From assembly GCA_003488105.1 (NCBI GenBank), contig DNMS01000196.1, positions 1 through 11,768 of the forward strand: a DNA stretch of 11,768 nucleotides. Direction: 5' to 3'. The notes under the pieces are model-generated. The model saw nothing but the letters and a program-made list of their open reading frames with translations. It had not been told where the DNA came from and searched no databases. This document shows positions 2,991 through 11,506 of this stretch, piece by piece. The DNA comes from Rhodospirillaceae bacterium (lineage in GTDB: Bacteria; Pseudomonadota; Alphaproteobacteria; Rhodospirillales_A; Casp-alpha2). Position numbers and translations under genes: made by a program. Position 1 is the stretch's first letter. Each line of letters starts with the position of its first letter.

Positions 2991-4202
2991 ATGGCACGAG
3001 GTGACGGGCCGCTCGGCGGCATGAAGGTCTTGGACCTGACCCATGTGATGGCCGGGCCGACCTGTGCCCTCATGCTGGCCGACATGGGTGCCGACGTGAT
3101 CAAGGTGGAAAAGGTGCCGGGCGGCGACGACACGCGCCGCGCGGCCCCGCCCAAGATCGGCGACGAAGCCGCCGCCTTCCTGGTCATGAACCGGGGCAAG
3201 CGGTCGGTCGCCGTCGACCTCAAAACCCCGGGCGGTCAGGCCGCCGTGCGGCGCATGGCGCTCGAGGCCGATGTGCTGCTGGAAAACTACCGCCAGGGCA
3301 CCCTGGCTAAGCTGGGCCTGGATTACGACACCCTGAAAAAGGAAAACCCCAAGCTGGTGTGGTGCTCGATCTCCGGCTTCGGGCAGACGGGCCCTTACGC
3401 GGAACGCGGCGGCTTCGATCTGATCGCCCAGGGCATGTCGGGGCTCATGCATATCACCGGCGAGGGCCCGGGACGCCCGCCCTGCAAGGTCGGCTCGCCG
3501 ATCACCGACATCACCGCCGGCCTGCTGGCCGCCATGGGCGTGTCCGCCGCCTATGCCCATGCGGTCAAGACCGGCCAGGGCCAGGTCGTCGATACCTCTT
3601 TGTTCGAGGCCGGGATCATTCATACCTACTGGCAGTCGGCGATCGCCTTCGCGACCGGGGAATCCCCCGCCGCCATGGGCTCGGCCCATCCCCTGAACGC
3701 CCCCTATCAGGCGTTCGAAACCGCCGACGGCTGGATCACCTGCGGTGCCGCCAATCAGCGGACCTGGGAGCGCCTGCTTGAAGCCCTCGACAATCCGGCC
3801 ATCGCCGACGATCCCCGGTTCACGGACAACACCGGGCGCATGGCCAACCGCCAGGCGCTCGAAGACGTGCTGACGCCGATCTTCAAATCGAAACCCTCCG
3901 CCGACTGGCTCGCCACGTTCGACGCCGTCGGCCTGCCCGCCGGGCCGGTCCTCGACATCACCCAGATGCACGCCGACCCGCACGCCATTGCCCGCGACAT
4001 GATCGTCGAGGTGCCGCACAAGACCCTCGGCACCGCCAAGGCGTTGGGCATGCCGGTGAAGTTTTCCGGCACGCCGGCCAAGACGGACCAGGGCGCGCCT
4101 GTCTACGGTCAGCACACGCGGGAAGTTCTCGCCGAATACGGCTATGGCGCCGACGAAATCCAGAGCCTGATCGATACGGGGGCCGTGATTGCCGCCGACT
4201 AG
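2991..4202 (+). CDS. Family III CoA-transferase (CaiB/BaiF family)
   Basis: The 403-residue protein shows the full CaiB/BaiF pattern. It opens with GPLGGMKVLDLTHVMAGP, then has DMGADVIKVEK (31-41) and the RGKRSVAVDLKTPGG block (68-82). LVWCSISGFGQTGPYAERGGFDLIAQG follows at 122-148. D201 in GQVVDTSLFEA is the expected catalytic aspartate, which forms an acyl-aspartyl anhydride in this family. The C-terminal half carries GLPAGPVLDI (314-323). These enzymes move CoA between carboxylic acids, for example formyl-CoA and oxalate or succinyl-CoA and other diacids. Substrate cannot be predicted from these motifs. A strong GGAAGGAA (2978-2985) supports ATG 2991. The gene lies directly after the aminotransferase. 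Its TAG overlaps the stop of the convergent protease gene. Confidence 0.9.
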   Translation: MARGDGPLGGMKVLDLTHVMAGPTCALMLADMGADVIKVEKVPGGDDTRRAAPPKIGDEAAAFLVMNRGKRSVAVDLKTPGGQAAVRRMALEADVLLENYRQGTLAKLGLDYDTLKKENPKLVWCSISGFGQTGPYAERGGFDLIAQGMSGLMHITGEGPGRPPCKVGSPITDITAGLLAAMGVSAAYAHAVKTGQGQVVDTSLFEAGIIHTYWQSAIAFATGESPAAMGSAHPLNAPYQAFETADGWITCGAANQRTWERLLEALDNPAIADDPRFTDNTGRMANRQALEDVLTPIFKSKPSADWLATFDAVGLPAGPVLDITQMHADPHAIARDMIVEVPHKTLGTAKALGMPVKFSGTPAKTDQGAPVYGQHTREVLAEYGYGADEIQSLIDTGAVIAAD

Positions 4203-5182
4203 GGCCGCGGCTTTAAGATCAGGGTGATTTCACGAATCGCTCCGCCGCGCCGCACGGTCAGGGCGACGGTATCCCCCGCGTGATGGCGGAACAAGGATGC
4301 GCGAACCTGCCCCGGTGACGTGACGGGCCTGCCGTCGGCTTTTGTGATGATATCTCCGGCATCGATTCCGGCCGTGAAGGCGGGGCCGTCCGGTGTCACT
4401 TCAACCACCGCAACGCCGCCGGTCTGTTCCTGTTGTTGGGCGGACAGTAACCCCGTCTCCATCCCCGCCGTGGTTTCGATGACCTTGCCGTGGGCGGCCA
4501 GGTCGCGGACGACCCGCGCGACAATCGGCTGAGACGCGGCGAAGTTGACGCCGATGTTGGCATCAGACCCTTGCGCGAAGATGGCCGAGACCATGCCGAT
4601 CAGGCGGCCCTTACCGTCGACCAGGGCTCCTCCCGAGCCGCCCGGATTGACGGCCGCGTCGGTCTGAATGAAATCCTCGATCTCGTTGAACCCGGCATTG
4701 GCCCGGCCCACCGCCGAGACGACGCCGCAGGACACGGAAATTCCCCGGCCGAACGGATTGCCGATGGCGCAGGCCGGTTCGGCCAGATTTGGTTCGGGCC
4801 CCGGCTCGGCCACGGGCAGGTCGATGGCGGCCTTCAGCAGGGCGATGTCTGTCGCCTTGTGGCGGCCGACGATTTCGGCGGGAACCGTGCGGCCGTCGCT
4901 CAGGCGAACGCGGACACTGACGGCGTTGCCCAGCACATGATCGTTGGTCGCGACATAGCCGCCGGGCAGGACCGCGACGCCGGAGCCTTCCGGGGCGATG
5001 CGCCCATCGGCGCTTTTCGGCGCGAAGCCGGGCCGCACGCCTTGCCAACTCGGCAACACGACGACCACGGACTGTGCCGCCTTGGCCACGGCGGCGGGGT
5101 CGATGCCGTCGGCTGTTCCCATGCGGGGTGCCAAAGCAAGGGTTGCCGCCAGGGCGGAAGCAATGAGAAAGCGTGCGCTCAT
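4199..5182 (-). CDS. HtrA/DegP-like periplasmic serine protease with one PDZ domain
   Basis: From ATG 5182 the product has 327 residues. It starts with a signal peptide (MSARFLIASALAATLALA, plausible cleavage after A24 in GTA). The trypsin-like domain shows H82 in TNDHV, D112 in TDIALLK and S183 in NPGGSGGAL, which form the expected catalytic triad. One PDZ domain follows at about residues 255-325, containing GPAFTAGIDAGDIITKADGRPV. The family degrades or senses misfolded envelope proteins. The usual GNSGG around the serine is GGSGG here. The frame stays open up to 5263, but the extension would bury the signal peptide inside the protein and cover the divergent promoter region, so I chose 5182. 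The Shine-Dalgarno sequence is weak (GAAGG very close to ATG). DegQ/DegS-like members with one PDZ are close alternatives. The gene is convergent with the CoA-transferase. Confidence 0.87.
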   Translation of the reverse strand: MSARFLIASALAATLALAPRMGTADGIDPAAVAKAAQSVVVVLPSWQGVRPGFAPKSADGRIAPEGSGVAVLPGGYVATNDHVLGNAVSVRVRLSDGRTVPAEIVGRHKATDIALLKAAIDLPVAEPGPEPNLAEPACAIGNPFGRGISVSCGVVSAVGRANAGFNEIEDFIQTDAAVNPGGSGGALVDGKGRLIGMVSAIFAQGSDANIGVNFAASQPIVARVVRDLAAHGKVIETTAGMETGLLSAQQQEQTGGVAVVEVTPDGPAFTAGIDAGDIITKADGRPVTSPGQVRASLFRHHAGDTVALTVRRGGAIREITLILKPRP

Positions 5183-5211
5183 GCCTTCGTCTTTACCATG
5201 ATGCGAAGCGG

Positions 5212-5235
5212 CCTGCCGACCTCTATATTGGCAGG
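5212..5235 (+). promoter_or_regulatory. Dyad around a TATATT box between the protease and DUF6505-like genes
   Basis: CCTGCC (5212-5217) and GGCAGG (5230-5235) form a 6-base inverted repeat with 12 bases between the arms. Inside lies TATATT (5224-5229), a reasonable -10 box placed about 34 bases before ATG 5263. No clear -35 box is seen at the right distance. The element could be an operator over the promoter of the rightward gene. Confidence 0.3.
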
Positions 5236-5262
5236 TCAGGACTTGGGAGGAATTCCGACACA

Positions 5263-5745
5263 ATGAAGTTTGCGCGCACCATCCGGCTTGATGGCTCGGA
5301 CCAGAATGTGTTCGACAACCCGGCGGAACCGGGTGAATGGGCTGTCGCCGGCACCTTTGAATTCGCCGATGGCGATCCGTCTTTCTGGACCAATAAACAG
5401 CAGCTGGCGTTCAAAAGCGGTTGGCTCGGCCTCGGCAGTTTCGGGCGGTCGACCTTCGTGCAGGTCGCGGTGCTGCCCGACGGCCAGGTCGAGGATGCGG
5501 TGCGCGCCCTGGCCGGGTATCTGTATGAACGCTACGGTGCCCCCGACATGATGGCGGCCCTTGATGCGGCCCGGGGCGAATGCCGCGACATGGCGGAGTT
5601 GTGCGACCATCCGGCAGGCACGCTTCTGGCCATCGAACGGGATCTGACCGACGAAGGCATTGCTGAGCGTGTACGCATCATCCCCGCTAAGGGCGACGGC
5701 CAGCACGCCCGCATCTGGGGTGTGGCGGGGGACGATCCGGCCTGA
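5263..5745 (+). CDS. Small DUF6505-like protein of unknown function
   Basis: The 160-residue product starts at ATG 5263, after a strong GGGAGGAA (5245-5252). The opening MKFARTIRLDGSDQNVF and the following AEPGEWAVAGTFEFAD resemble, from memory, the alphaproteobacterial family DUF6505. No enzyme motif, signal peptide or membrane segment is visible. The chain is acidic, has two cysteines (C110 and C117) in the C-terminal half, and includes a WLGLGSFGRSTFVQVAVLP segment that looks like beta strands. The function is unknown. It is divergent from the protease with 80 bases between start codons and is followed by a 159-base gap before bufA. The frame could be extended upstream to 5173, but the ribosome binding site supports 5263. 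It could share regulation with the protease. Confidence 0.72.
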   Translation: MKFARTIRLDGSDQNVFDNPAEPGEWAVAGTFEFADGDPSFWTNKQQLAFKSGWLGLGSFGRSTFVQVAVLPDGQVEDAVRALAGYLYERYGAPDMMAALDAARGECRDMAELCDHPAGTLLAIERDLTDEGIAERVRIIPAKGDGQHARIWGVAGDDPA

Positions 5746-5904
5746 ACGGCCCACAGAATCCGCCGTATTTCGCTCAACTCCGTCTCACACCCTTGTGATG
5801 CCCTGCGACGTCAACGTTACGCCCACATTCGGAATGCACGGGTACACTCCCCATCGACCGGACACGAGAGCCGGGTCATAGGCTTCACCTAAGGAGAGTA
5901 CCCA

Positions 5905-6171
5905 ATGTCGATCCAGAAAAAGACCGCCGGCGCCACGCTGGCCACCGCCGCCGCCGCCCTGTTCATCGCCGGTGCCGCCATGACGGTCGCCCCGACCGCG
6001 GCCCAGGCCGATGGTGTTAAATGCATGGGCGCCAATTCCTGCAAGGGCCACGGGTCCTGCAAGACCGCGTCCAACGAGTGCAAGGGCCACAACGCCTGCA
6101 AGGGCAAGGGCTGGGTGTCCACAAAATCCGAAAAGGAATGCATGGAAATGGGCGGCACGGTCGCCAAATAA
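5905..6171 (+). CDS. bufA2: BufA2-like bufferin precursor (secreted Cys-rich peptide metallophore)
   Basis: The 88-residue precursor starts at ATG 5905 behind AAGGAG (5891-5896). It has a long signal peptide with the basic start MSIQKK, an Ala-rich core and an AQA cleavage site after A35. The mature part is about 53 residues with six cysteines at 40, 46, 52, 59, 65 and 79. They sit in two related units, NSCKGHGSCK and NECKGHNACK, followed by GKGW. Bufferins are ribosomal peptides whose cysteines are oxidised to heterocycles by a DUF692 enzyme. They act in the periplasm and, in studied members, help cells withstand excess copper. The next two genes are exactly the maturation partners expected. 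The peptide family is identified by architecture and memory. The metal bound and the residues modified are inference. Confidence 0.85.
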   Translation: MSIQKKTAGATLATAAAALFIAGAAMTVAPTAAQADGVKCMGANSCKGHGSCKTASNECKGHNACKGKGWVSTKSEKECMEMGGTVAK

Positions 6172-6206
6172 CGGCACCCTGATCCCTGCCCGATACGACG
6201 GATTGC

Positions 6207-6244
6207 GGGGGGCCGGAGGCATCCGGCCCCTCGTTTCCGTTTTT
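6207..6244 (+). terminator. Intrinsic terminator or attenuator between bufA and bufB
   Basis: GGGGCCGGA (6209-6217) and TCCGGCCCC (6222-6230) form a perfect 9-base-pair stem with a four-base loop, GGCA. A G-T and a G-C pair extend it to 6207-6232. TTT (6234-6236) and TTTTT (6240-6244) follow. It lies 35 bases after the bufA stop and 17 bases before bufB. Partial read-through would give abundant precursor and little enzyme. Confidence 0.75.
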
Positions 6245-6261
6245 GCGCTAGGCTTCTTTCC

Positions 6262-7119
6262 ATGACTCTCTGCCAAGGTTCCTTCACCGGTTTCGGGCTC
6301 GGCCTGCGGCCGCAGCATTTCCCGGACATTCTCGGCCCCGAGGGGGCCGATGACCTGGATCGTGTCGACTGGTTCGAAATCATCTCGGAAAATTTCATGG
6401 CCGTGGGCGGCATGCCGCTGCGCAACCTGATGGCCGTGCGCGAACGCCGTCCCATGGCCATGCACGGGGTGTCGCTGTCGATCGGCGCCCCCGATCCCCT
6501 GGATGACGACTATCTCAAAAATCTGAAATCGCTGGCCGATCTGATCGACCCGGCGGTCGTGTCCGACCATCTGTGCTGGACCGGCGCGCACGGCGTCAAC
6601 CTGCACGACCTTTTGCCCCTGCCGTTGACCGAGGAAACCCTGGACCATGTGGCGGCGCGGGTCCGTCAGGTGCAGGACGCCCTGGGGCGGCGCATCGCGT
6701 TGGAGAACGCCTCGACCTATGTGACCTTCACCGCCGACACCATGAGCGAATGGGATTTCCTTGCCGAACTGACGCGGCGGGCGGACTGCGACCTGCTGCT
6801 CGACGTTAATAATGTTTACGTGTCGGCCTTCAACCACGGTTTCGATCCGGCCGACTACCTGGCGGGCATCCCCAAGAACCGCGTGCGCCAGATCCATCTC
6901 GCCGGGCACGAACACAACGGCGACCACATCGTCGACACGCACGATGCGCCGGTGGCCGACCCGGTATGGGATTTGTACCGCAGCGCGGTCCGTAGATTCG
7001 GCGCCGTGCCGATGATGATCGAACGCGATGCCAACATCCCGCCCTTTGCCGACCTGGTTGATGAATTAGGCGCGGCGCGGCGGCTGACCGCAGAGGTATT
7101 GGACGAGGCTGCGGCATGA
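6262..7119 (+). CDS. bufB: BufB, DUF692/MNIO family bufferin maturase
   Basis: The 285-residue protein has the DUF692 TIM-barrel pattern of multinuclear non-heme iron oxygenases. Motifs in order are GLGLRPQHF (12-20), E39 in WFEIISENF, H68 in MHGVSLSIG, D102-H103 in SDHLCW and E148 in LENASTYV. D181 and the Asn pair in DVNNVYVSAFNHG follow, then H212 and H216 in IHLAGHEH, D225-H227-D228 in DTHDAP, and E254/D256 in ERDANIP. These acidic and histidine residues are the expected iron ligands. Enzymes of this type oxidise cysteines of a precursor peptide, here presumably the bufA product, in the cytoplasm before export. The ribosome binding site is weak (TAGG at 6249-6252), consistent with low expression relative to bufA. 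The stop overlaps the start of bufC as ATGA. Methanobactin enzyme MbnB is a distant relative, but the neighbours point to BufB. Confidence 0.93.
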   Translation: MTLCQGSFTGFGLGLRPQHFPDILGPEGADDLDRVDWFEIISENFMAVGGMPLRNLMAVRERRPMAMHGVSLSIGAPDPLDDDYLKNLKSLADLIDPAVVSDHLCWTGAHGVNLHDLLPLPLTEETLDHVAARVRQVQDALGRRIALENASTYVTFTADTMSEWDFLAELTRRADCDLLLDVNNVYVSAFNHGFDPADYLAGIPKNRVRQIHLAGHEHNGDHIVDTHDAPVADPVWDLYRSAVRRFGAVPMMIERDANIPPFADLVDELGAARRLTAEVLDEAAA

Positions 7120-7910
7120 CTTCCCTGGCAGAAATACAGAACCTGTTCCAGGACCGCCTGTTGACAGGCCGCGCGGATATCGAAGCGCATCTGACGTCGG
7201 GCGGCCCGTTCCTCAAGGTCTACGACCATGCCTATGTGGCGCGGTTGCTGGAAATCATGGGCGAGGACTTCCCTGCCGTGCATACGCTGCTCGGCGACGA
7301 CGCCTTCGCCGAGGCGGCGGCGGCCTACGTGCGGGGCCAACCGTCGACCGCGCGCTCCGTGCGTTGGCTGGGCGCGCGGTTCAGGAATTGGCTGGGCGAC
7401 ACCGCGCCCTGGTCGGACCTGCCGGTACTAGCCGACATGGCGGCGTTCGAATGGGGCCTGGGCCTGGCCTTCGATGCGCCCGACGCGGATGCCCTGGGTG
7501 TCACGGCGCTGGCCGCCGTGCCGCCGGAAGCCTGGCCGGTCCTGACCTTCGATTTCCATCCCGCCCTGAACACGGCGGCGCTTGCCCACGACGTCGCCCC
7601 GTTCCAGCAGGCCGTGGCCAACGGCCGGGACCCCGAGGCGGCGCCCGAGGTGGCGCCGGACGGCCCGCAAGCCTGGGCCTTCTGGCGCGACGGGGAAACC
7701 TGCCAGGTGCGTTACCGTGCCCTCAATGCCGATGAGGCATCAGGGCTCGCCCTGCTGCGTGCCGAGGGAGATTTTCAGGCCTTGTGTGAAACCCTTGCCG
7801 AGACGGGCGATGGGGATGCCGCCGCCCTGCGTGCCGCCGGATACCTGCGCGGCTGGGTCGAGGCGGGCTGGATCATCGACCTGTCCGCGCCCGGCCTCAG
7901 CTGGGCCTGA
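7116..7910 (+). CDS. bufC: BufC, HvfC/BufC family partner protein (DUF2063)
   Basis: The 264-residue product begins with a DUF2063 domain at about residues 1-95. Signatures are IQNLFQDRLL, FLKVYDHAYVARLLEIMGEDFPAVHTLLGDDAFAEAA in shortened form at 32-68, and a final RFRNWL (88-93). The C-terminal half is a less conserved domain ending in a helical, DUF2063-associated region. In buf and hvf operons this protein forms a complex with the MNIO enzyme and presents the precursor peptide. It is not an enzyme as far as known. Its ATG overlaps the bufB TGA by one base on each side (ATGA, 7116-7119), so translation is probably coupled. No signal peptide is seen, so it should act in the cytoplasm. The older name 'DNA-binding domain' for DUF2063 has no support here. 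Confidence 0.9.
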   Translation: MTSLAEIQNLFQDRLLTGRADIEAHLTSGGPFLKVYDHAYVARLLEIMGEDFPAVHTLLGDDAFAEAAAAYVRGQPSTARSVRWLGARFRNWLGDTAPWSDLPVLADMAAFEWGLGLAFDAPDADALGVTALAAVPPEAWPVLTFDFHPALNTAALAHDVAPFQQAVANGRDPEAAPEVAPDGPQAWAFWRDGETCQVRYRALNADEASGLALLRAEGDFQALCETLAETGDGDAAALRAAGYLRGWVEAGWIIDLSAPGLSWA

Positions 7911-7921
7911 TCAAGGCCCAG
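7901..7921. terminator. Hairpin at the bufC stop, possible bidirectional terminator
   Basis: CTGGGCCT (7901-7908) and AGGCCCAG (7914-7921) form an 8-base-pair perfect stem with loop GATCA. The bufC stop lies in the left arm and loop. No T tract follows on either strand. It sits between the convergent bufC and tRNA genes, where a shared terminator would be expected. Confidence 0.35.
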
Positions 7922-7931
7922 GCCGGGCGGC

Positions 7932-8008
7932 TGGTGACCCCGACAGGATTTGAACCTGTGACCCCAGGATTAGGAATCCTGTGCTCTATCCGACTGAGCT
8001 ACGGGGCC
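7932..8008 (-). tRNA. tRNA-Arg, anticodon CCU
   Basis: A complete cloverleaf can be folded on the minus strand. The acceptor strand GGCCCCG (8008-8002) pairs with CGGGGTC (7942-7936), including one G-U pair. The D arm has GCTC/GAGC. The anticodon stem CAGGA/TCCTG carries loop TTCCTAA, so the anticodon is CCT and the tRNA reads AGG. The T arm is ACAGG/CCTGT with loop TTCAAAT. Discriminator A is followed by an encoded CCA (7934-7932). AGG is a rare Arg codon in GC-rich genomes, so this is a minor tRNA. Confidence 0.97.
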
Positions 8009-8100
8009 AACGCCGACGCGGTTGGATGCGCCCGTCTATACCACAGGTCTCCGCGCCGATTCCAAGGTTTGCTGGCGGGGACGGTAGGGCGGCGGACCGC

Positions 8101-8622
8101 CTATTTGAACAGGCGCTTGATGCGGTCCATGGACATGGAATAGTTCAGCATGACCGATTCCACGCCCGGATTGCCGTCGCCCAGGCCCGCGTTGGATGAA
8201 TGGTCGATGGAAATGCCGATGCGCGAACGGTCGTCGAAGCGGTAGGCAAGTTCCAGGCGGGAGCGGAATTCAAGTTCGTGCCCCAAGTCCAGGTTCGACG
8301 TGGCGCCCCGCCAGTAGGTCGGCGAGAACTGAGGCGTCAGCACGAAGCGCCGCCCGAGATAGATGTCGACCAGCACGCCGGCCCCGATGAACGACGAATT
8401 GTTGGTCGCATAGGCGGCGGTCAGGAACGGTTTGAAAATCCAGAATTTGTTGCCGAACCGATAGTCGAGGCGGATTTCCGCATCTTGTTCCCGGTTGCGC
8501 AGGGTATCGAATTTACCGACGGCGAGGGTCAGAAAGTCGGGGTCGTCGGCGGCCCGCGCGGCGCCGGACGGCAATACCGTCACGGCGGCAAGCAATGCCG
8601 GAACGATCAATTTCTTGAACAT
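8101..8622 (-). CDS. PagL-like lipid A 3-O-deacylase (acyloxyacyl hydrolase family)
   Basis: The 173-residue product begins with a signal peptide (MFKKLIVPALLAAVTVLPSG, cleavage near ARA, residue 24). The rest reads as alternating amphipathic strands typical of a small eight-stranded outer-membrane barrel. It ends in the basic tail RIKRLFK. H141, S143 and E155 in DHSSNAGLGDGNPGVES have the spacing (+2, +14) of the catalytic His-Ser-Glu triad known for PagL. PagL removes the 3-O acyl chain from lipid A, which alters outer-membrane properties and immune recognition. ATG 8622 is preceded by GGGGAAGAG. The gene stands alone between the tRNA and the aminopeptidase, all on the same strand, and has its own candidate promoter at 8674-8701. 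The barrel start and family are clear. Activity on this host's lipid A is inference. Confidence 0.82.
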   Translation of the reverse strand: MFKKLIVPALLAAVTVLPSGAARAADDPDFLTLAVGKFDTLRNREQDAEIRLDYRFGNKFWIFKPFLTAAYATNNSSFIGAGVLVDIYLGRRFVLTPQFSPTYWRGATSNLDLGHELEFRSRLELAYRFDDRSRIGISIDHSSNAGLGDGNPGVESVMLNYSMSMDRIKRLFK

Positions 8623-8723: not shown

Positions 8724-9725
8724 TTAGACCGCGTCGAGCCGCCGAAAGCTGTCCATGGCTTTGACCAGGGAGGAGCGGATGCCCGGCTCCATAGCCGAAT
8801 GGCCGGCGTCGGGCACGATGACGTAGTCGGCATCGGGCCAGGCCTGCGCCAGTTCGTCCGCCGTGGCGATCGGACAGACCATGTCATAGCGGCCCTGCAC
8901 GATGGCGCAGGGCAAATGGATGATGCGCCCGATGTTGGCGAGCAGATGATTTTCCGCCATGAACACGTCGTTGACGAAGTAATGGGCCTCCAGCCGGGCC
9001 AAGGATAATGCCCCTCGCCCGGAACCGCCGCCGCCGTCGCCGTGATGCAGGGTCGAACAGGCGGATTCGAACTGGCTCCAGACCTCGGCTGCCGGACGGT
9101 GGATGTCCGGGTCGGGGTCGTTCAGGCGTTTGTGGTAGGCGGTCAGGATGTCGCCCCGTTCGGTTTCGGGCAGATATCCCGAAAACCGGCGCCAGGCTTC
9201 GGGGTAGATACGTTTCATGCCGTAGAGGAACCAGTCGACCTCTGACTTGCGGCCGAGAAAGATGCCGCGCAGCGCGAAGCCCCGGCATCGGTCCGGATGG
9301 GCGATGCCGTAGGCCAGCGCCAGGGTCGAGCCCCAGGAGCCGCCGAACACGAACCATTTGTCGATGTCGAGCTGGCGGCGCAATGCCTCCATGTCGTCGA
9401 TCAGGTCCTGGGTCGTGTTGTTGCGCGTCTCGCCGAAGGGGGTGGAGCGTCCCGCACCCCGCTGGTCGAACACGACGATGCGGTAATGATCGGGGTCGAA
9501 GAACCGGCGGTGCGACGGGTTGGAGCCGGCCCCCGGCCCGCCGTGCAGGAAGATCACCGGCACGCCGGTCGGATTGCCTGACTGTTCCCAATAGATGCGA
9601 TGCCCGCCGGAAACGTCCAGATGGCCCTGGGCATGGGGTTCGATCCGGGGATAGAGGTCCGGCGACGGGCGGTTCAAGGCGGAGTTGGATTTATCCAATG
9701 TTCGTTGGCCGGTTCGGGTTTTCAA
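8724..9725 (-). CDS. pip: Prolyl aminopeptidase (proline iminopeptidase), TTG start
   Basis: The alpha/beta hydrolase of up to 333 residues has the family opening LYPRIEPHAQGHLDVSGGHRIYWEQSGNP in shortened form at residues 24-52. Oxyanion motif HGGPG is at 61-65 and DQRGAGRS at 87-94. The nucleophile elbow GGSWGS (128-133) carries S130. D281 in GRYDMVCP and H309 in AGHS complete the triad. The enzyme releases N-terminal proline from peptides in the cytoplasm (EC 3.4.11.5). There is no ATG or GTG before residue 112, so translation must begin at TTG, either 9725 or 9698. I favour 9725, which has a GGGGG run a few bases upstream. A Gly-rich loop, GGGGSGRG (231-238), lies in the cap domain. It is the last gene of the operon with the YtoQ-like gene, 37 bases apart. 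Confidence 0.88.
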   Translation of the reverse strand: MKTRTGQRTLDKSNSALNRPSPDLYPRIEPHAQGHLDVSGGHRIYWEQSGNPTGVPVIFLHGGPGAGSNPSHRRFFDPDHYRIVVFDQRGAGRSTPFGETRNNTTQDLIDDMEALRRQLDIDKWFVFGGSWGSTLALAYGIAHPDRCRGFALRGIFLGRKSEVDWFLYGMKRIYPEAWRRFSGYLPETERGDILTAYHKRLNDPDPDIHRPAAEVWSQFESACSTLHHGDGGGGSGRGALSLARLEAHYFVNDVFMAENHLLANIGRIIHLPCAIVQGRYDMVCPIATADELAQAWPDADYVIVPDAGHSAMEPGIRSSLVKAMDSFRRLDAV

Positions 9726-9762: not shown

Positions 9763-10254
9763 TTAATTAAGTTGGCCGGAAATCGCGTATTTCAACAGGC
9801 GCACGACCTGATCGGGCGTTTCCGCCGTTGCCATGGCGGCACCGTTCACTTCCTTCAACGCGTGGGTCAGGGACGGATCGTGCAGCGTGATCATCGGCGT
9901 CCCAAGGGCGGCGGCATATCCGGCGTCGAAGGCGGCGTTCCATTGTTTGTACTTGTCGCCGAAGCGCACGACAACCACGTCGGCGCGTTCCATCAAGGTG
10001 CGGGTGCGGATGGCGTTGACCTTGGCACCCTTGTGGTCCTTCCAGAAGGGGTCGGGCTCGTCACCCAGAATGGCCACGCCGCAATCGTCGCTCGATGCAT
10101 GGTCGGTCACCGGGCCGACGAATTCGATGGGCAGGCCTGCCTCGGCGGCGCCGGCGGCGATCTGGTCGCGCCAGTCGGTATGAATTTCGCCGGACAGATA
10201 AACAGTCCAGGGCGTATCGTCGCTGAACGGGCGGTTGTTCGCTTGGTTGCTCAC
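9763..10254 (-). CDS. ytoQ: YtoQ family protein
   Basis: The 163-residue product starts at GTG 10254, preceded by AAGGGAA at a good distance. It matches the YtoQ family: VYLSGEIHTDWRDQI (22-36), FVGPVTDHASSDDCGVAILG, then DPFWKDHKGAKVNAIRTRT and ADVVVVRFGDKYKQWNAAFDAGYAAALG in shortened form toward the C-terminus. The fold resembles nucleoside 2-deoxyribosyltransferases and other Rossmann-like nucleotide binders, but no activity is established for YtoQ as far as I know. A longer frame to TTG 10323 would overlap the Nudix gene and has no good ribosome site, so I rejected it. It lies 31 bases after the Nudix gene and 37 before the aminopeptidase, which suggests one transcript. Confidence 0.85.
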   Translation of the reverse strand: MSNQANNRPFSDDTPWTVYLSGEIHTDWRDQIAAGAAEAGLPIEFVGPVTDHASSDDCGVAILGDEPDPFWKDHKGAKVNAIRTRTLMERADVVVVRFGDKYKQWNAAFDAGYAAALGTPMITLHDPSLTHALKEVNGAAMATAETPDQVVRLLKYAISGQLN

Positions 10255-10285
10255 TGGGTCGTTCCCTTCGTTTTCTGATTTTCGG

Positions 10286-11140
10286 TCAGCGCAGGGCCGT
10301 GTGCAGGCCCCGTTGAATCTCAAGGTAATCGGAATGGTCGGGTCCGATAAACCCCCGGCGGATTAAAAAGTCGATGACGACAACCCCGCAGTTGAATTTG
10401 AAATCTTCGCTCTCGCGCACAGTGTCCATGACCTGGTCCATGGACCACAAGTAGAATTCCTCGACCTCGCCGTCCGTGTTGTGGGGCTGGAAGTCGGCCG
10501 GAAGCTCCAGATCGTAATTGAACAATACGTCGCGGCGCAGGCCCTCGGGCCGCTCCGTGCAGTAGGACATGGCCCCGATGGGCTGGGCCCGGCGGGCGAT
10601 GCCCTCGGGAATTCCGGCTTCCTCGACACATTCCTTGATCAGATTGTCCATCACGCCGATCCCGGCGGGCAGGCCGCCGGCGACCAGCTGATCCAGCTTG
10701 CCGGGCCCTGTCGGCTTGGTCATCGAGCGTTTTCCGACCCACATCTTCAGCCGGTCGCCGTCATGCACGAACCCGTTCAGGTGCACGCCGTAGCCCAAGG
10801 TCCCGAACAGGGGCACGGCCGCGCGCTCCATCTGGAACAGCGGCGGGGTCCCCCAGTCCTCGCAAACGGCATAAGGCTCGTTGCGCCAGCCGGGGATCAG
10901 ATCCCGTGATCGCAGTTCGGCCAGGACCTCGGCCATGGCGGCGCTGCGTGACGCCGCATCGCCCAACTCCGGGGTCAGCGTGACCTCGGCATCGGAAATC
11001 TGCAAAACCGCCCCGAAATCGGCCAACTGGGGGATGAAATCCCGATGGATCAGGCCGACCCGCCTGTGGTCCACGGTGAAGGGCCGATAGGCCGACGGCT
11101 CCCAGGCCTGCAGGGCGCGGACACGCTCCAGATAGCTCAT
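10286..11140 (-). CDS. DUF4743 Nudix hydrolase (thiamine diphosphate phosphatase-like)
   Basis: The 284-residue product has an N-terminal DUF4743 region (about 1-115, including LIHRDFIPQLADF) and a Nudix domain at about 116-260. The Nudix box runs 155-177: GGLPAGIGVMDNLIKECVEEAGI in parts GGLPAGI and KECVEEAGI. E170, E173 and E174 are the metal-binding glutamates. The first conserved Glu of the general consensus is Ile (I161), and Arg is Lys (K169); both changes match plant NUDX20/24 and the yeast YJR142W protein. Those enzymes hydrolyse thiamine diphosphate, with preference for damaged thiamine derivatives. The role here, cleaning up damaged cofactor in the cytoplasm, is inference. ATG 11140 follows the ACT gene by 21 bases. 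GGCGGA is a modest ribosome binding site. Confidence 0.88.
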   Translation of the reverse strand: MSYLERVRALQAWEPSAYRPFTVDHRRVGLIHRDFIPQLADFGAVLQISDAEVTLTPELGDAASRSAAMAEVLAELRSRDLIPGWRNEPYAVCEDWGTPPLFQMERAAVPLFGTLGYGVHLNGFVHDGDRLKMWVGKRSMTKPTGPGKLDQLVAGGLPAGIGVMDNLIKECVEEAGIPEGIARRAQPIGAMSYCTERPEGLRRDVLFNYDLELPADFQPHNTDGEVEEFYLWSMDQVMDTVRESEDFKFNCGVVVIDFLIRRGFIGPDHSDYLEIQRGLHTALR

Positions 11141-11161: not shown

Positions 11162-11506
11162 TTAGGCATGGGCGTCACCTTGCTTTTCGGCGACCAGAAC
11201 GGCCTCGACACAGAACTGACGGCGCAGTTCCTGGGCGATGAGCCGGGCCTGTTCCGCATCCGAATCTTCAAGATGAACCTCAACGATCAGGCCTTCCTTC
11301 GGCGTGGATGTGCGGCTGGCGTGGATGTGCCCGGGGATCAGGCCGCGCTTGGCGAAAACCGCGACCACGCGGGGCAGGGTGCCCGGATCGGCCAGGGCCT
11401 GCACGGAAAAGCATTGCGTCGGCTGGGCCTTGCGTTCGTGTCGCGCACGGGAAGCCGGGGAAAAAGCGGGGGAATGCGGGGCGTGCCCGCGGTCTTGGGT
11501 CTGCAT
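11162..11506 (-). CDS. Small ACT-domain protein, IlvH/IlvM-like
   Basis: The 114-residue product has a polar, probably unstructured N-terminus (1-30). One ACT-like domain covers about 31-108, from QCFSVQALADPGTLPRVVAVF to RQFCVEAVLVAEK in shortened form. The pattern of the first strand and helix, with a Pro-Gly turn before LPRVVAVFAKRG, resembles the small subunit of acetolactate synthase, where the ACT domain binds valine. It is longer than IlvM and shorter than IlvH, so a distinct regulatory ACT protein is equally possible. No synthase large subunit is in the window. ATG 11506 is preceded by AAAGGA. It is the first gene of the operon with the Nudix, YtoQ and aminopeptidase genes (gaps of 21, 31 and 37 bases). 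Confidence 0.72.
   Translation of the reverse strand: MQTQDRGHAPHSPAFSPASRARHERKAQPTQCFSVQALADPGTLPRVVAVFAKRGLIPGHIHASRTSTPKEGLIVEVHLEDSDAEQARLIAQELRRQFCVEAVLVAEKQGDAHA

What the first reader, a model, noticed from the sequence alone, without database searches (positions are those of the whole stretch)
5905..7910. Complete bufA2-bufB-bufC operon for a cysteine-modified peptide metallophore
A secreted 53-residue six-Cys peptide is followed by a DUF692/MNIO enzyme with all expected ligands and a DUF2063 partner overlapping it by ATGA. This is the layout of bufferin biosynthesis, a recently recognised class of modified peptides tied to copper stress. The Cys pattern (spacings 6, 6, 7, 6, 14) with two CKGH units is specific and could carry several heterocycles. 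No DoxX-type membrane gene (often found with buf operons) is in the window.
Basis: partly seen in the sequence, partly recalled or inferred. Interest (0 to 1): 0.72.

Follow-up and report, generated by a model that had tools for sequence, protein, structure and literature searches.

The report
Bufferin-2 copper-binding peptide operon
This is a standard three-gene operon, found in many proteobacteria, for a small exported cysteine-rich peptide that two partner proteins probably modify chemically so that it can bind excess copper; it is a new example of a recently described kind, not a new kind.

Summary
Window 5905-7910 (+) carries bufA2-bufB-bufC. BufA scores 87.4 bits on NCBIfam Cu_RiPP_BufA2 (cut-off 60), BufB 373 on MNIO_BufB (cut-off 310). 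BufC has DUF2063 and a predicted fold like NGO1945 (PDB 3dee) and TglHI-entry chains. The candidate iron ligands and the proposed base are invariant in 86 of 86 BufBs (window included) that follow a BufA2 gene. The six-Cys pattern is the family norm; four central Cys are Cys-Lys sites. Missing DoxX is normal here: 0 of 13 BufA2 operons in 61 related genomes have it, against 15 of 15 Buf1 operons.

Modest additions: (1) a terminator-like hairpin between bufA and bufB (stem of 10 or more pairs in 60 of 85 homologous spacers, 52 of 850 shuffles), a thing not named in three papers searched for it; (2) a conserved motif inside the signal peptide, fitting a leader role; (3) Ala at the BufB site where the published Cys-Lys group has Asp. 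Modification, copper binding and regulation are inferred, not shown. New member of a known kind; modest interest.

The parts
5785..5848 (+). conserved upstream block with fixed spacing, TCACA-N4-YGTGA-N13-CAWCGTKAC-N22-TACACT; candidate operator and -10
   Evidence: seen by aligning the upstream regions of the window and 10 relatives (L111 departs in the last hexamer). The part up to CAWCGTKAC has one exact match in each of 10 genomes, none for the backwards-read control; the pattern was derived from these loci.
5905..6171 (+). bufA2: bufferin-2 precursor, 88 aa; signal peptide about residues 1-35, six Cys at 40-79
   Evidence: NCBIfam NF050166 Cu_RiPP_BufA2 87.4 bits, cut-off 60
5929..5961 (+). 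conserved signal-peptide motif GxxLAxAAAxL (BufA residues 9-19), candidate leader/recognition motif
   Evidence: A13 in 83 of 84, G9 in 70 of 84, A15 and A16 each in 75 of 84 aligned homologues
6205..6234 (+). terminator-like hairpin between bufA and bufB (13 pairs, 4-base loop), followed by TTCCGTTTTT
   Evidence: hairpins at the same place in relatives and stems of 10 or more pairs in 60 of 85 homologous spacers
6262..7119 (+). bufB: MNIO (DUF692) bufferin maturase, 285 aa
   Evidence: NF050167 373.2 bits, cut-off 310; PF05114 370.3 bits, cut-off 25
7116..7910 (+). bufC: DUF2063 partner protein (PME type 1), 264 aa
   Evidence: PF09836 58.9 bits, cut-off 27.2; AlphaFold2 model, mean pLDDT 93.5, matches 3dee and chains of TglHI entries

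Best explanation
A bufferin-2 (Buf2, 'Cys-Lys captophorin') operon of an alphaproteobacterium whose nearest named relatives are Rhodospirillaceae MAGs. BufA is made with a Sec signal peptide that also serves as leader. In the cytoplasm the C-terminal RRE-like part of BufC holds the precursor while BufB, an iron enzyme, oxidises central Cys residues (most likely C46, C52, C59 and C65, each followed by Lys) to 5-thiooxazoles; the outer Cys C40 and C79 probably pair as a disulphide, by analogy with Buf1. The product is exported by Sec, cleaved after AQA, and binds excess copper in the periplasm. The hairpin after bufA lets a share of the transcripts end there, so that precursor outnumbers enzyme. 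Shown by sequence: gene identities, order, active-site residues, hairpin. Inferred from relatives or from the anatomy: modification, sites, export, copper role, attenuation.
For: Curated family hits for BufA and BufB above cut-off; DUF2063 in BufC. H68, H103, E148, D181, N183, N184, H212, D225, H227, E254 and base D256 invariant in 86 of 86 BufBs beside a strong BufA2, window included; they line up with MbnB and 3BWW. BufC model resembles NGO1945 (3dee, E 8.3e-6) and chains of TglHI entries (E about 1e-5), and more weakly leader-binding lasso B1 proteins (probability 0.96-0.99, E 0.2-0.7). Six Cys invariant; Lys after C46 in 77 of 86, after C52 in 65 of 86, after C59 in 69 of 86, after C65 in 84 of 85. 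Hairpin enrichment (19 of 31 clusters at 70% BufB identity). The Buf2 description in PMC12452194 and the Cys-Lys group in PMC13097082 fit.
Against: BufC does not reach the NCBIfam HvfC cut-off (35.9 against 142 bits). The BufB residue proposed to contact the substrate Lys is Ala (A257), not Asp. None of the 9 other window ORFs scanned is a copper gene, and 2 of 8 genomes of the genus showed no BufA2. The terminator scan of 5200-8200 found 1 site against 2.0 expected from shuffles, so the window's hairpin alone is not significant; its T-run is interrupted (TTCCGTTTTT); the closely related L105 hairpin fails the T-run rule (listed there as L006); and in 44 of 85 spacers no stem of 10 or more pairs with a T-run was found.
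Confidence: 0.85

Rival explanations
1. Same operon, but the physiological metal or stress is not mainly copper (zinc, gold, mercury or oxidative stress); the modified peptide buffers another soft metal.
For: PMC12452194 (passages and section 14 seen) mentions MerC fusions and bufferin operons linked to gold. No copper gene among the 9 other window ORFs scanned; the upstream element matches only at bufA in the 10 genomes scanned, so it names no regulon.
Against: The abstracts of PMC12452194 and PMC13097082 tie characterised members to copper stress and copper detoxification.
Confidence: 0.2
2. A different number or kind of Cys modification than four thiooxazoles, because the Lys-contacting Asp of BufB is Ala here: for example only C46, C59 and C65 modified, or fewer.
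For: A257 in BufB (Ala in 17 and Gly in 3 of 86). C52 is the central Cys least often followed by Lys (65 of 86). Ala/Gly enzymes go with slightly fewer CK sites (mean 3.42, n = 19, against 3.80, n = 41; only precursors with exactly six Cys in the last 110 residues counted; no significance test, related sequences).
Against: Ala/Gly enzymes still mostly face CK-rich precursors (11 of 19 have four); FonB-F250A still gave modified product (PMC13097082 section 14).
Confidence: 0.35
3. A decayed or unexpressed operon.
For: None beyond lack of expression data.
Against: All three frames intact; the 12 best homologues are 85-98% identical over the full length; operon, hairpin and upstream block are kept in six genomes of the genus and in four genomes of two other genera (upstream block weaker in L111).
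Confidence: 0.02

Closest known systems
Bufferin 2 (Buf2, Buf_6/12Cys; BufA2 family, NCBIfam NF050166)
   Same: secreted six-Cys precursor, gene order bufABC, MNIO and DUF2063 partner
   Different: no DoxX here; BufB has Ala at the proposed Lys-contacting site; no other difference seen
Bufferin 1 (Buf1, DUF2282) of Caulobacter vibrioides
   Same: signal peptide, MNIO plus DUF2063 partner, thiooxazole chemistry expected
   Different: other precursor family; Buf1 operons of the related genomes carry DoxX (15 of 15), and 7 of 8 read have a shorter precursor-enzyme spacer than the Buf2 median
Captophorins of the Lys-Cys (EGKCG) group: fontiphorin (FonABC), oxazolin (HvfABC)
   Same: MNIO with PME-type 1 partner, Cys-rich precursor, 5-thiooxazole (PMC13097082)
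   Different: Lys-Cys repeats instead of Cys-Lys; Phe at the site that is Ala257 here
Methanobactin (MbnABC)
   Same: MNIO whose conserved residues align with those of BufB
   Different: no signal peptide, other partner (MbnC), oxazolone-thioamide product, copper scavenging (PMC12452194 section 4)

Membership tests
BufA2 (bufferin 2 precursor) | score above the curated cut-off of NF050166 | tested here: met
   87.4 bits, cut-off 60
BufA2 (bufferin 2 precursor) | six conserved Cys (90% of Buf2; PMC12452194) | tested here: met
   Cys 40, 46, 52, 59, 65, 79; invariant in all aligned rows that have the column (84-86 rows)
BufA2 (bufferin 2 precursor) | N-terminal Sec signal peptide | tested here: inconclusive
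   basic start, hydrophobic stretch and AQA site read by eye; no signal-peptide predictor run
BufB / MNIO | PF05114 and NF050167 above cut-off | tested here: met
   370.3 bits, cut-off 25 and 373.2 bits, cut-off 310
BufB / MNIO | iron ligands and catalytic base | tested here: met
   aligned to MbnB and 3BWW, invariant in 86 of 86; which residues bind iron is partly recalled; metal content not measured
BufB / MNIO | Asp at the proposed Lys-contacting site of Cys-Lys enzymes (BufB2-Asp251, PMC13097082) | tested here: not met
   Ala257; D 66, A 17, G 3 of 86. A trait of a published sequence logo, not a defining feature of the family; position matched by me through the ERD-x motif
[quoted passage not shown]
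   PF09836 58.9 bits; model matches 3dee; a profile of 30 BufCs hits 3dee, E 0.00079, the single sequence does not. The RRE part also shows in lasso B1 matches, but with E above 0.1
BufC / HvfC | NCBIfam HvfC model NF050145 | tested here: not met
   35.9 bits, cut-off 142; HvfC is the partner named for another captophorin, so this does not exclude BufC
Bufferin operon | gene order bufA-bufB-bufC | tested here: met
   window; bufC seen downstream in 69 of 86 homologous operons, many of the others being on loci too short to show it
Bufferin operon | DoxX gene (core in many, not universal) | tested here: not met
   none in the window; 0 of 13 related BufA2 operons have one
Captophorin | 5-thiooxazole on Cys, copper binding | not testable with these tools
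   needs mass spectrometry, UV and metal binding

The most novel reading that the evidence does not exclude
Buf2 operons share an undescribed built-in ratio control: a partial transcription terminator between the precursor gene and the enzyme genes, kept as a structure more than as a sequence across Alpha-, Beta- and Gammaproteobacteria, which yields extra bufA-only messages and may respond to metal stress; and the Ala257 clade recognises Cys-Lys sites without the published Asp-Lys contact.
Probability: 0.45. Interest if true: 0.4.

Novelty: new member of a known kind. Interest (0 to 1): 0.28.

Why it matters
It adds a clean Buf2 operon and shows that in its relatives DoxX goes with Buf1 and not with Buf2, so a linked DoxX gene is not needed for all bufferins. 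The shared hairpin gives a simple, testable account of how a cell could make much stoichiometric buffer peptide with little enzyme. The Ala257 enzymes are natural test cases for the proposed rule of substrate reading.

Tried and rejected
Regulator of bufA: I recalled that the upstream GTGAC/GTTAC repeats resemble the Caulobacter UzcR site, but the review PMC8963506 (passages seen) gives CATTAC-N6-TTAA, so the idea was dropped; PMC12864828 (passages) prints no site. A triple-repeat scan had its two spacers in the wrong order for this site and gave 110 matches against 128 for its control; it says nothing. The half-element with the -10 had its only exact matches at bufA, in 3 of 4 genomes (G025 none), and 16 two-mismatch matches elsewhere against 13 for the control.

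Search for a copper regulon through the upstream element: one match per genome, all at bufA, so no regulon. The pattern was made from these same loci, so only the lack of other sites is informative.

Asp/Ala257 against the number of Cys-Lys sites: a small difference, not tested against phylogeny, not claimed.

The DoxX seed from G060 was an ORF in a wrong frame; the DoxX count that I use rests on the Pfam search, not on that profile.

The window's own genome was not held, so copper genes elsewhere in it could not be examined, nor did I look for them in the relatives. A literature search with the bare word 'bufferin' returned papers on buffering and was useless; one search added nothing new.

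Full report
What is there. Neighbours by Pfam: aminotransferase class V (1754-2932, +), CoA-transferase family III (2991-4202, +), trypsin-like/PDZ protease (4199-5263, -), DUF6505 (5269-5745, +), then the buf genes, a tRNA-Arg(CCT) at 7932-8008 (-), PagL (8101-8622, -), an alpha/beta hydrolase (8724-9725, -), a YtoQ-type deoxyribosyltransferase (9763-10323, -), a DUF4743/NUDIX protein (10286-11140, -) and one ORF without a hit (11162-11506, -). The ORF that runs off the left end (3-1565, -) was not scanned. None of the scanned neighbours is a copper gene.

Family tests. BufA scores 87.4 bits on NCBIfam NF050166 (BufA2, cut-off 60) and BufB 373.2 bits on NF050167 (MNIO_BufB, cut-off 310); BufC scores only 35.9 on HvfC (cut-off 142), but 58.9 on Pfam DUF2063 (cut-off 27.2), and BufB 370.3 on PF05114 (cut-off 25). 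The homologue search with BufA scored 175 candidates and returned 166 proteins at E <= 0.001, of which 120 were listed; two listed rows carry the UniRef name 'BufA2 family periplasmic bufferin-type metallophore' (one cut short in the listing). Annotation pipelines already know this family.

Kinship. The nearest named record by BufB is L023 (Rhodospirillaceae bacterium isolate SAT42, 89% identity), then L024 (EAC36, 77%). The genome nearest by DNA, G001, shares 38% of sampled 31-letter words. A marine origin is likely from the names of the MAGs but was not tested.

BufB. From the loci I collected 128 MNIO ORFs; 107 were unique by their last 240 residues. Of these, 86 (window included) had a strong BufA2 (above 60 bits in a profile made from the 120 listed homologues and the window) upstream, 7 a weak one and 14 none. 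In the 86, H68, H103, E148, D181, N183, N184, H212, D225, H227, E254 and D256 are invariant, and they align with residues of MbnB (7dz9) and 3BWW. Which of them bind iron is partly recalled from the MbnB literature; PMC13419390 (section 23 read) reports that the predicted site-3 ligands N175, D242 and H244 of HvfB are needed for activity, which fits the N...D-x-H pattern here. I place D256 at the proposed base FonB-D249 and A257 at FonB-F250 / BufB2-D251 of PMC13097082 (sections 13-15 read) by the ERD-x motif. Residue 257 is Asp in 66, Ala in 17 and Gly in 3 of 86. The Ala group holds the window, six genomes of its genus, seven further relatives of G001, Rhodobium orientis (L039) and two gammaproteobacterial MAGs (L072, L075).

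BufC. An AlphaFold2 model from 30 BufCs (picked by hand from those found, window first) has mean pLDDT 93.5. Foldseek against the PDB gives three matches at E <= 0.001: 3dee (NGO1945), 8hi7_A and 8hci_A (TglHI entries); leader-binding lasso B1 proteins follow with probability 0.96-0.99 but E 0.2-0.7. The profile of the 30 also finds 3dee by sequence, E 0.00079; the single sequence finds nothing at 0.001.

BufA. Aligned over the 86 loci (15 to 86 rows per column), all six Cys are invariant; Lys follows C46 in 77 of 86, C52 in 65 of 86, C59 in 69 of 86 and C65 in 84 of 85; in the window C40 and C79 are followed by Met. In Buf1 the central Cys are modified and the first and last form a disulphide (PMC12452194, Fig. 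3 legend); carrying this to Buf2 is inference. The signal peptide is rather conserved: mean information 2.43 bits over residues 1-26, against 1.73 for 27-38, 3.31 for 40-70 and 2.42 for 71-88, with the motif GxxLAxAAAxL. PMC12452194 speaks of preliminary results that the Buf1 signal peptide is part of the recognition sequence (passage), which this fits.

DoxX. In 61 related genomes (G001 and 60 relatives) BufA2 was found in 18 (14 with a match above cut-off), PF05114 in 20, DoxX in 38 and DUF2282 in 14. Joining the tables, of 30 MNIO places 13 follow an above-cut-off BufA2 and none of these has DoxX within 3 kb downstream on its strand; 15 follow DUF2282 and all 15 have it, 849-1056 bases after the MNIO match; 2 follow neither and have none. 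In G036 the contig ends 943 bases after the MNIO match and in G011 about 1.7 kb after, so G036 could hide a DoxX. Among the 80 loci, 12 hold a DoxX-like ORF, none directly after the bufC of a strong-BufA2 operon; four Colwellia or Cognaticolwellia loci and L034 have it just before bufA on the same strand. Several of the 80 loci are too short to show the downstream side.

Hairpin. A 13-pair hairpin with a T-rich tail lies between bufA and bufB (6205-6234). The scanner found 1 such site in 5200-8200 against 2.0 expected from shuffles, so alone it proves nothing. But 10 of the 11 family loci (window included) show a hairpin of 11-17 pairs there by a simple search, and the eleventh (L111) shows one in its fold. 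Over 85 distinct spacers (of 86; one was too short), a stem of at least 10 pairs occurs in 60, against 52 of 850 dinucleotide shuffles and 13 of 83 stretches of equal length ending 330 bases before the bufA stop (mostly upstream of bufA; inside it for long precursors); with at least four T in the next eight bases, 41 of 85 against 4 of 850 and 5 of 83. Reduced to 31 clusters at 70% BufB identity, 19 have the stem and 9 also the T-run. Folding energies agree: median z -3.17, 62 of 85 below -2 (60 shuffles each). In eight Buf1 operons taken for contrast, one spacer was too short to search and one of the other seven had such a stem, none with a T-run; L118 has a longer-looped stem by eye. The words terminator and hairpin do not occur in the main text of PMC12452194, PMC13097082 or PMC12538549, and one wider search (10 of 675 papers listed) showed nothing relevant; the original bufferin paper was not among the papers found, so I cannot say that the hairpin is unpublished. 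Partial terminators after precursor genes are known from other RiPP operons (recalled), so the idea is not new in kind.

Promoter region. Upstream of bufA a block with fixed spacing (5785-5848) is kept in the window and 10 relatives, L111 departing in the last hexamer. In 10 genomes the core pattern matches once each, always at bufA. No regulator is proposed.

Verdict. A real, intact and ordinary Buf2 operon. Its chemistry and copper role are very likely those of its family but rest on relatives. The additions (hairpin, DoxX split, signal motif, Ala257) are useful details of a known kind.

Noticed in passing
window 7932-8008 (-): tRNA-Arg(CCT) stands directly after bufC; ARAGORN also finds one in the fetched buf loci of 5 of 6 genomes of the genus (L103-L107, not L108) and in L114, not in L109-L113.
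   Followed up: partly
window 8101-8622 (-): PagL-like lipid A deacylase domain (PF09411, 62.2 bits, cut-off 23).
   Followed up: no
window 5269-5745 (+): DUF6505 ORF (PF20115, 173.5 bits) ends 159 bases before bufA; similar sequence stands upstream of bufA in the six genomes of the genus.
   Followed up: partly
L114 (G028), positions about 4000-8000: A BufA2 operon and a Buf1-MNIO-DoxX operon stand back to back, divergently, in one genome.
   Followed up: partly
L041, L046, L049, L051, L052, L054, L057, L062, L065, L081, L083; L066, L085, L087, L091, L092, L102: BufA2 precursors with duplicated domains (13 Cys counted in the ORF) or with extra Cys units inserted (10-12 Cys counted), beside the usual six-Cys form.
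   Followed up: no
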